A stretch of 36,547 bases of DNA, from contig CAJOLW010000004.1 of NCBI GenBank assembly GCA_905235525.1, positions 1-36,547 on the forward strand, in the 5' to 3' direction. Made by a program: the position numbers and the translations under genes. This DNA is from an uncultured Bacteroidaceae bacterium. GTDB taxonomy: Bacteria > Bacteroidota > Bacteroidia > Bacteroidales > Bacteroidaceae. The notes under the pieces are model-generated. The model was given only the letters and a program-made list of their open reading frames with translations, made no database searches and was not told where the DNA came from. Below are positions 1 through 1,034 of this stretch, one piece after another. Position 1 is the stretch's first letter, and every line of letters begins with the position of its first letter.

Positions 1-57
1 AGTAATGTATAACAAACTTTTTGTACCTTTGCTGCACACTACCAAAGTGGTATACTT

Positions 58-498
58 TTAGATTATTATCTGGTATACTTTTGCATTATCATTTACATTA
101 TTAATCATGAGTAAAACACGTGCCAATTCTTCCAGAGTGATTTCTTCCGTTGCTGCTTTTGCACGAAGGCGATAGGTCTCGAATGTTGTTCTATTGCCGT
201 TCTCACATAAGATGGACTCATCATTGATAAAACCATTCTCTTTTAAGCAACTTATCAGATTCTCTCTGCGGAGTTTATAGCGTTGCAAATTGCGGCGCAT
301 GCTGCGTTTCAAGGTTCTATCTGCATTGGTCGTGATAGGCTTCCCTTTTTCAAAGTTTGTTTGTTCATCAACAGTTAAAGGGTTTACACGAACTCCCAAT
401 TTGACGATAGACGATTTCTCGTCCTTGTTTGTGGCTTCATTCACCACAGCCCAACCGATACTTGTTGTGCCTAAATCGAGGCCTAAAATTTTTTTCAT
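58..498 (-). pseudogene. cas9: Truncated Cas9, N-terminal fragment (type II-C)
   Basis: The 146-residue product begins with the RuvC-I motif of Cas9 (ILGLDLGTTSIGWAVV; the catalytic Asp is residue 8), followed by an arginine-rich bridge helix at about residues 59-83 (RTLKRSMRRNLQRYKLRR) and the start of the REC lobe. Full Cas9 proteins are roughly 1000-1500 residues. Here recognisable sequence ends at about residue 132 (ELARVLLMIN). Where Cas9 normally continues with a KKRGYKS-like segment, 14 unrelated residues lead to a stop. HNH, RuvC-II, RuvC-III and PAM-interacting domains are absent from the window, so nuclease activity is not expected. A Bacteroidetes-type promoter and a divergent tracrRNA gene upstream are intact. 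The rest of cas9 could lie beyond base 1 if an element inserted here, or could be deleted. Identification as Cas9 is firm; the cause of truncation is inferred. Confidence 0.9.
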
Positions 499-536
499 TG
501 TGGTAAAAGTATTTCTAATTTGAAGTTATTTGCTGC

Positions 537-568
537 CAAATTTACGAAAAAACAATAAAATTGTCAAA
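537..568 (-). promoter_or_regulatory. Promoter of cas9 remnant
   Basis: On the minus strand a TTTG (plus positions 565-568) is followed after exactly 20 bp by TAAATTTG (537-544). This matches the Bacteroidetes -33/-7 consensus TTTG...TAnnTTTG. Transcription would start near 530, giving a leader of about 30 nt before the cas9 ATG at 498. The -33 box lies only 5 bp from the -33 box of the divergent tracrRNA promoter. Confidence 0.65.
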
Positions 569-573
569 ATAAA

Positions 574-605
574 TTTGTATATTATCTAAAATCATCGTAA
601 TTTTG
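574..605 (+). promoter_or_regulatory. Promoter of tracrRNA
   Basis: TTTG at 574-577 and TAATTTTG at 598-605, separated by 20 bp, fit the Bacteroidetes promoter consensus. A start about 6 nt downstream would place the RNA 5' end at about 611, exactly where the anti-repeat begins. Confidence 0.7.
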
Positions 606-610
606 CCTCA

Positions 611-694
611 CTAATTTGAAGCAAATCACAATAAGGATTATTCCGTTGTGAAAACATTCAGGTTTCTGCCCTCGTCCTTAACGGGGGCTTTTTT
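611..694 (+). ncRNA. tracrRNA of type II-C CRISPR-Cas
   Basis: The RNA would begin with an anti-repeat at 611-631 (CTAATTTGAAG followed by CAAATCACAA). This is complementary to the 5' portion typical of Bacteroidetes II-C CRISPR repeats (TTGTGATTTGC-like). A nexus-like segment AAGGATTATTCCG follows at about 633-645. The gene ends in a strong intrinsic terminator: an 8-bp stem (668-675 with 681-688, one G-T pair), a 5-nt loop and six T residues. Position next to the cas9 5' end and divergent orientation are common for II-C loci. No CRISPR repeat is seen in the window, so guides, if any, must be elsewhere. The assignment rests on anti-repeat, nexus, terminator and neighbour; the exact 5' end is inferred from the promoter. 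Confidence 0.85.
668..694 (+). terminator. Rho-independent terminator of tracrRNA
   Basis: GCCCTCGT (668-675) pairs with ACGGGGGC (681-688) across a CCTTA loop and is followed by TTTTTT (689-694). Confidence 0.85.
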
Positions 695-1034
695 ATTATA
701 ATTGGATGAACTTTCAGCCCCCCCAAAAAGTGATACTATTGATACAGGATAAATCTTGACGAATTGATTCATGTCTTTCCTCTTATTCTATCTTTAGATT
801 ATTATTGTTTTCTACTGCAAAGATACACTCCTGCTGTTTCAAATCACGGTACAGGTTTCACTTTTTTCGGTATTGTATATGCAAAATTACATAATAAATC
901 TCAAAAATGAAAGAATGGGAGAATGAAATATCGAAAAAAGTGAGGTGGGTTAATAGCCGATGTCTTATTCAGTCATTTTCACGTTGTTATGTCATTCGCT
1001 GTTCCCTTGCAAAAGTCGGCACGGTGCGCCTCTC

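What the first reader, a model, noticed from the sequence alone, without database searches (positions are those of the whole stretch)
58..694. Beheaded II-C CRISPR locus: Cas9 stub with intact tracrRNA gene
Seen: a 146-residue Cas9 stub (RuvC-I and bridge helix only) divergent from a tracrRNA gene with matched promoter, anti-repeat and terminator; no repeats in the window. Known: tracrRNA is useless without Cas9 and a repeat array. Inference: the locus is either freshly interrupted, with the rest beyond base 1, or the tracrRNA and the bridge-helix stub are kept for another role, such as RNA binding or regulation of a second Cas9 elsewhere. The clean promoters and terminator argue against long decay.
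Basis: partly seen in the sequence, partly recalled or inferred. Interest (0 to 1): 0.75.

Follow-up and report, generated by a model that had tools for sequence, protein, structure and literature searches.

The report
Cas9 gene cut by transposon end
A bacterium's CRISPR-Cas9 gene is broken near its start by the end of a jumping gene, right where the assembled DNA piece stops, so this looks like a recently disabled immune locus (a known kind of event) whose guide-partner RNA gene is still intact.

Summary
Window 98-498(-) encodes residues 1-133 of a type II-C Cas9 (96% identical to an intact relative), divergent from an intact tracrRNA gene at 609-694(+). But base 1 is the end of contig C4, and bases 1-97 are not cas9: they are the terminus of an IS21-family insertion sequence. 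The junction is sharp: six IS-end homologues tested stop at base 97 (one at 96), and cas9 of three relatives aligns from base 98. The stub's last 13 residues come from IS DNA. Searches of the assembly found no other Cas9, no cognate repeat and no intact type II cas1; it does hold a separate type III-D locus. C4 reaches 97 nt into its IS and contig C14 reaches 98 nt into a related IS end, as expected if a multi-copy IS broke the assembly. The rest of the locus is thus either unassembled/unbinned or deleted; I cannot tell which. The stub shows no sign of relaxed selection (2 nonsynonymous, 13 synonymous lineage changes), so the hit looks recent. IS insertion into cas genes is published. The reading that stub or tracrRNA was kept for a new role, or for a second Cas9, has no positive support.

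The parts
1..97 (+). terminus (istB-proximal end) of an IS21-family insertion sequence, cut off by the contig end; on the minus strand it starts TGTAAAT and carries two copies of AAAAGTATACCA
   Evidence: 82-91% identical over 85-98 aligned positions to elements in four related genomes; homology stops at base 97 or 96; in L058 the same sequence directly follows an IstB_IS21 fragment, PF01695 E 4.5e-14
98..498 (-). 5' part of cas9, codons 1-133 plus two bases (RuvC-I segment and arginine-rich bridge helix; domain names recalled)
   Evidence: TIGR01865 93 bits; 89% nt identity to G027 cas9 starting at base 98; 96% aa identity over residues 1-133
58..97 (-). read-through tail of the stub in IS DNA, with the stop codon; not Cas9 sequence
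   Evidence: ORF and comparison with G027 cas9
537..567 (-). predicted cas9 promoter: TTG at 565-567 and TAAATTTG at 537-544
   Evidence: TAnnTTTG match; TTG read by eye; consensus recalled
575..605 (+). predicted tracrRNA promoter: TTG at 575-577 and TAATTTTG at 598-605
   Evidence: TAnnTTTG match; TTG read by eye; consensus recalled
609..694 (+). tracrRNA gene: anti-repeat 610-632, terminator hairpin 668-688 plus T6 at 689-694
   Evidence: alignment of the window with 16 relative loci; fold and duplex

Best explanation
This is the tracrRNA-proximal remnant of a type II-C CRISPR-Cas9 locus, inactivated by insertion of an IS21-family element after codon 133 of cas9. Shown: the sharp IS/cas9 junction at 97/98, the contig end 97 nt inside the IS, the intact tracrRNA gene, and that searches of the assembly found no other Cas9 and no cognate repeat. 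Inferred: the contig broke because the IS is present more than once in the sequenced sample; the event is recent; the stub, which lacks the rest of RuvC, HNH and the PAM-interacting part, cannot be a nuclease; the tracrRNA may still be transcribed but has no known partner in this genome. Whether the remaining locus was deleted or only left out of the assembly is undecided; I put deletion at about 55%, because the far side of the locus should otherwise appear on some contig.
For: Window = whole contig C4, 36547 bp. Of six IS-end homologues tested, five stop at query base 97 and one at 96, while 3 of 3 cas9 relatives tested align from base 98. IstB_IS21 fragment next to the same end in L058. C14 ends 98 nt inside a related IS end. 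Intact relatives: 8 of 13 fetched loci carry a long cas9 ORF plus a cas1-like ORF beside the tracrRNA (G027's cas1 and cas2 confirmed as Cas1_II and Cas2_II); of 9 loci scanned for repeats, 7 have arrays, 5 with the exact repeat matching this anti-repeat and 2 with a sibling repeat. The same Cas9 model finds full-length cas9 in G027, G033 and G023 but only the stub in G000. A DNA query of G027's array, cas2, cas1 and rest of cas9 finds nothing in G000 but aligns to the loci of G033, G023, G011 and G008. Lineage-specific changes in the stub: 13 synonymous/2 nonsynonymous in G000, 13/1 in intact G027. Natural IS insertion into cas genes is documented: 163 cases, 20 IS families, 57 genera (PMC10359306, abstract and section 6).
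Against: No transposase gene and no second IS end beside cas9 is in hand, so insertion is inferred from one terminus. A target-site duplication cannot be checked. The IstB model finds two partial hits in G000 that pass its cut-off (34.2 bits on C36, 33.1 bits on C14, inside ORFs of 507 and 710 aa); I read them as other ATPases, and so no body of this IS is in the assembly. If the IS is multi-copy, more right-type ends than this one would be expected in the bin; only C4 and the C14 variant were found. The flanks of C4 and C14 share no short direct repeat at the IS ends, so these two ends are not the two sides of one simple insertion.
Confidence: 0.88

Rival explanations
1. The tracrRNA, with or without the bridge-helix stub, was kept for a new role, for example as a small regulatory RNA or as an RNA-binding peptide.
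For: The tracrRNA gene is undecayed (86 of 86 nt as in G012, G010, G043). In G043 an identical tracrRNA persists although no Cas9 was found in that 98% complete genome. A type II-C associated small RNA with a regulatory role is reported in Neisseria meningitidis (PMC13431127; only the start of its abstract seen in the listing).
Against: No Cas9 partner in G000. The stub's substitution pattern equals that of intact G027, so it gives no sign of selection after the break, and its C-terminus is IS sequence. G043's -7 box reads TAATTTCG, off consensus, which looks like the start of decay. The tracrRNA is just as conserved in intact loci.
Confidence: 0.04
2. The IS disrupts cas9 in only part of the sampled population, or C4 is a chimera; the organism as such has an intact type II-C locus that was not binned.
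For: The contig ends 97 nt inside a mobile element, where assembly paths branch; contamination is listed as 2.74%.
Against: The junction is a clean element terminus, as in transposition, and the assembly shows no cas9 remainder, cas1, cas2 or array of this type.
Confidence: 0.08

Closest known systems
Type II-C CRISPR-Cas loci of Bacteroidales relatives with 47-bp repeats (e.g. G027/MAG RUI029; Bacteroides fragilis type II-C, PMC5704556, passages seen)
   Same: cas9 start, divergent promoters and tracrRNA as in G027, G033, G023
   Different: cas9 stops after codon 133; no cas1, cas2 or array of this kind found in the assembly
Natural IS insertions into cas genes (Sheng et al. 2023, PMC10359306; abstract, passages and section 6 read)
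   Same: a transposable element interrupts a cas gene and must abolish its product
   Different: only one IS end is visible here; the main text of that paper does not mention IS21 or tracrRNA; its supplementary lists were not seen
IS21-family insertion sequences (IstA/IstB)
   Same: terminus with repeated internal motif; the same end follows an IstB fragment in L058
   Different: body, transposase and second end are outside the contig

Membership tests
type II-C CRISPR-Cas | complete cas9 with RuvC and HNH | tested here: not met
   only profile positions 2-118 of 1070 matched; no remainder in the assembly
type II-C CRISPR-Cas | tracrRNA with anti-repeat to the cognate repeat | tested here: met
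type II-C CRISPR-Cas | cognate repeat array | tested here: not met
   none in window or assembly; assembly may be incomplete
type II-C CRISPR-Cas | cas1 and cas2 next to cas9, no csn2 or cas4 | tested here: not met
   contig ends before that side; elsewhere only a cas1-cas2 fusion remnant on C42 and the Cas1 of a type III-D locus on C10; csn2 and cas4 not searched
IS21 family | terminal sequence shared with elements that carry IstB | tested here: met
IS21 family | IstA/IstB genes inside this copy | not testable with these tools
   contig ends 97 nt inside the element
IS21 family | target-site duplication flanking the copy | not testable with these tools
   second junction not in the assembly

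The most novel reading that the evidence does not exclude
In this genus the tracrRNA gene outlives Cas9 as a free-standing, still transcribed RNA with its own use (for instance regulation of host transcripts, or readiness to serve an incoming Cas9): it is identical in two genomes where no complete Cas9 was found (G000 and G043) and is shared by two very different Cas9 types (the ~1385 aa kind and the ~1565 aa kind).
Probability: 0.05. Interest if true: 0.6.

Novelty: new member of a known kind. Interest (0 to 1): 0.17.

Why it matters
It shows how a striking 'stub plus intact tracrRNA' can arise from an ordinary transposon hit at a contig edge, and warns against reading contig ends as biology. 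The side observation that an identical tracrRNA gene persists in G043, where other genes sit in place of the cas genes, would let one ask how long tracrRNAs survive Cas9 loss.

Tried and rejected
Second Cas9 elsewhere in the genome: not found. A first try with Cas9_PI PF16595 found nothing, but its control genomes also gave nothing, so it is void. Rfam: no gathering match; below-threshold tracrRNA hit only. Recurrent stub of the same length: of 80 Cas9 loci in genome contigs (the best 80 of 282 confirmed), 64 have a closed ORF of at least 900 aa from the match, 11 run off the stored sequence and 5 are closed and shorter. One of those five, L115, ends at residue 134, but by a nonsense codon with Cas9 sequence continuing behind it, not by an IS. 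Synteny to find the missing left neighbour: the gene at 1298 has 9 relatives in 44 other genomes of the genus, but in the 9 regions fetched the neighbourhoods differ, so it does not tell deletion from missing contig. Stub or tracrRNA as viral cargo: 2 viral contigs records hold the tracrRNA core, both beside cas9 sequence. A scan of the loci in hand for tracrRNA cores without a Cas9 start within 700 nt gave 13 of 122 hits, with duplicates and orientation variants; I checked only G043 and, for contig position, G021. Literature: 'orphan tracrRNA' gave 0 papers; the search on cas9, tracrRNA, insertion sequence, pseudogene and orphan gave 1; four further searches ran, listings seen only, apart from passages of PMC5704556 and the abstract, passages and section 6 of PMC10359306. 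I do not claim that orphan tracrRNAs are absent from print. No structure prediction was run.

Full report
What is there. The 146-aa ORF at 58-498(-) is real and is the start of a Cas9 (TIGR01865 93 bits over profile 2-118 of 1070). On the other strand an 86-nt tracrRNA gene lies at 609-694: it aligns with 16 loci from related genomes and is identical in 3 of them. Its anti-repeat (610-632) pairs with the 47-bp repeat of intact relatives at -29.0 kcal/mol, better than any of 300 shuffled repeats (best -25.6), and it ends in a terminator hairpin with T6.

The window is the whole of contig C4 of a 72-contig assembly (99.78% complete, 2.74% contamination), so base 1 is a contig end. Cas9 homology does not reach it. 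Cas9 of G027, G033 and G023 aligns to the window from base 98 (89, 84 and 83% identity), whereas bases 1-97 match another kind of sequence, present in four other genomes of the genus at 82-91% identity, with shorter matches in two more places of related genomes and on C14 of this genome. Of six such homologues tested with a longer query, five stop at base 97 and one at 96. In L058 this sequence follows directly on an IstB fragment (PF01695, E 4.5e-14, profile 182-237 of 238), which identifies it as the istB-side end of an IS21-family insertion sequence. So cas9 was hit after codon 133, and the last 13 residues of the stub are IS-encoded.

Why the contig ends here. C4 reaches 97 nt into its IS; the only other similar end found in the genome closes contig C14 and is 98 nt long. 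Equal overhangs at two unrelated contig ends are what an assembler with one word length would give at a multi-copy element. This is inference; reads were not available. No body of the IS was found (two partial IstB-model hits inside other long ORFs).

What is missing. The Cas9 model finds in G000 only the stub and a 12.6-bit hit, while it finds full cas9 in G027, G033 and G023. A DNA query with G027's array, cas2, cas1 and rest of cas9 finds nothing in G000; the same query aligns to four relative loci. No cognate repeat array exists in the assembly. G000 does carry a separate type III-D locus on C10 (Cas10, Cas7_IIId, Cas5_IIId, Csx1, Cas1, Cas2) with a 40-copy array of an unrelated repeat, and a decayed type II cas1-cas2 fusion on C42, whose Cas1 part is 38% identical over 159 residues to the G027 Cas1 and is thus from another locus. 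Whether the lost part was deleted or not assembled stays open; synteny did not help.

Age. Against G033 as outgroup the stub has 13 synonymous and 2 nonsynonymous lineage changes, intact G027 13 and 1: no relaxed selection is detectable in 133 codons, though power is low. Frame, promoters, anti-repeat and terminator are undamaged. The break is therefore probably recent.

Mechanism. Transposition into cas9 removes most of RuvC, HNH and the PAM-interacting part (domain layout from general knowledge of Cas9), so RNA-guided cleavage is lost. The tracrRNA may still be made but has neither crRNA nor Cas9 in this assembly. IS attack on cas genes is a described, common process (PMC10359306; 163 cases).

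The other branch. That stub or tracrRNA were kept for a purpose lacks positive evidence. The best point for it is G043, where an identical tracrRNA and two leftover repeats flank foreign genes in place of cas9-cas1-cas2 and no Cas9 was found. That shows that a tracrRNA can persist in sequence after Cas9 loss; G043's altered -7 box suggests decay rather than use.

Noticed in passing
L047:240-5772 (G043 contig C8): cas9, cas1 and cas2 are gone; foreign genes, one with NOV_C and sacsin-like ATPase domains and a PADLOC TmtA match (8.7e-58), sit between two leftover type II-C repeats and an identical tracrRNA gene; no Cas9 was found in that genome.
   Followed up: partly
G000 C42:37093-37866 (L008:9094-9867): ORF that fuses the N-terminal part of a type II Cas1 (residues 1-169) to the latter part of a type II Cas2 (173-235): a decayed adaptation module near a contig end.
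   Followed up: partly
L046 (G012) and L048 (G010): the same 86-nt tracrRNA and the same repeat serve a Cas9 of about 1565 aa that is only 32% identical to the stub, as if cas9 had been swapped behind a kept tracrRNA and promoter.
   Followed up: no
window 731-889: non-coding stretch beyond the tracrRNA terminator is about 76% identical to the flank of the G027 locus, and a part of it to the flank of the G043 locus.
   Followed up: no
L009 (G000 C10:144000-162000): type III-D CRISPR locus with Csx1, Cas1, Cas2 and a 40-copy array.
   Followed up: partly
L181:533-1254 (viral contigs record): tracrRNA core beside a Cas9 start with an in-frame stop after residue 216, on a contig that also reads as having an integrase-like gene (by eye); Cas9 homology continues behind the stop.
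   Followed up: partly
L133 and L137 (two contigs of MAG RGIG4941): two loci of one genome whose cas9 ORF closes at the same 782 residues; in the matching G015 locus the rest of cas9 is in another frame.
   Followed up: no
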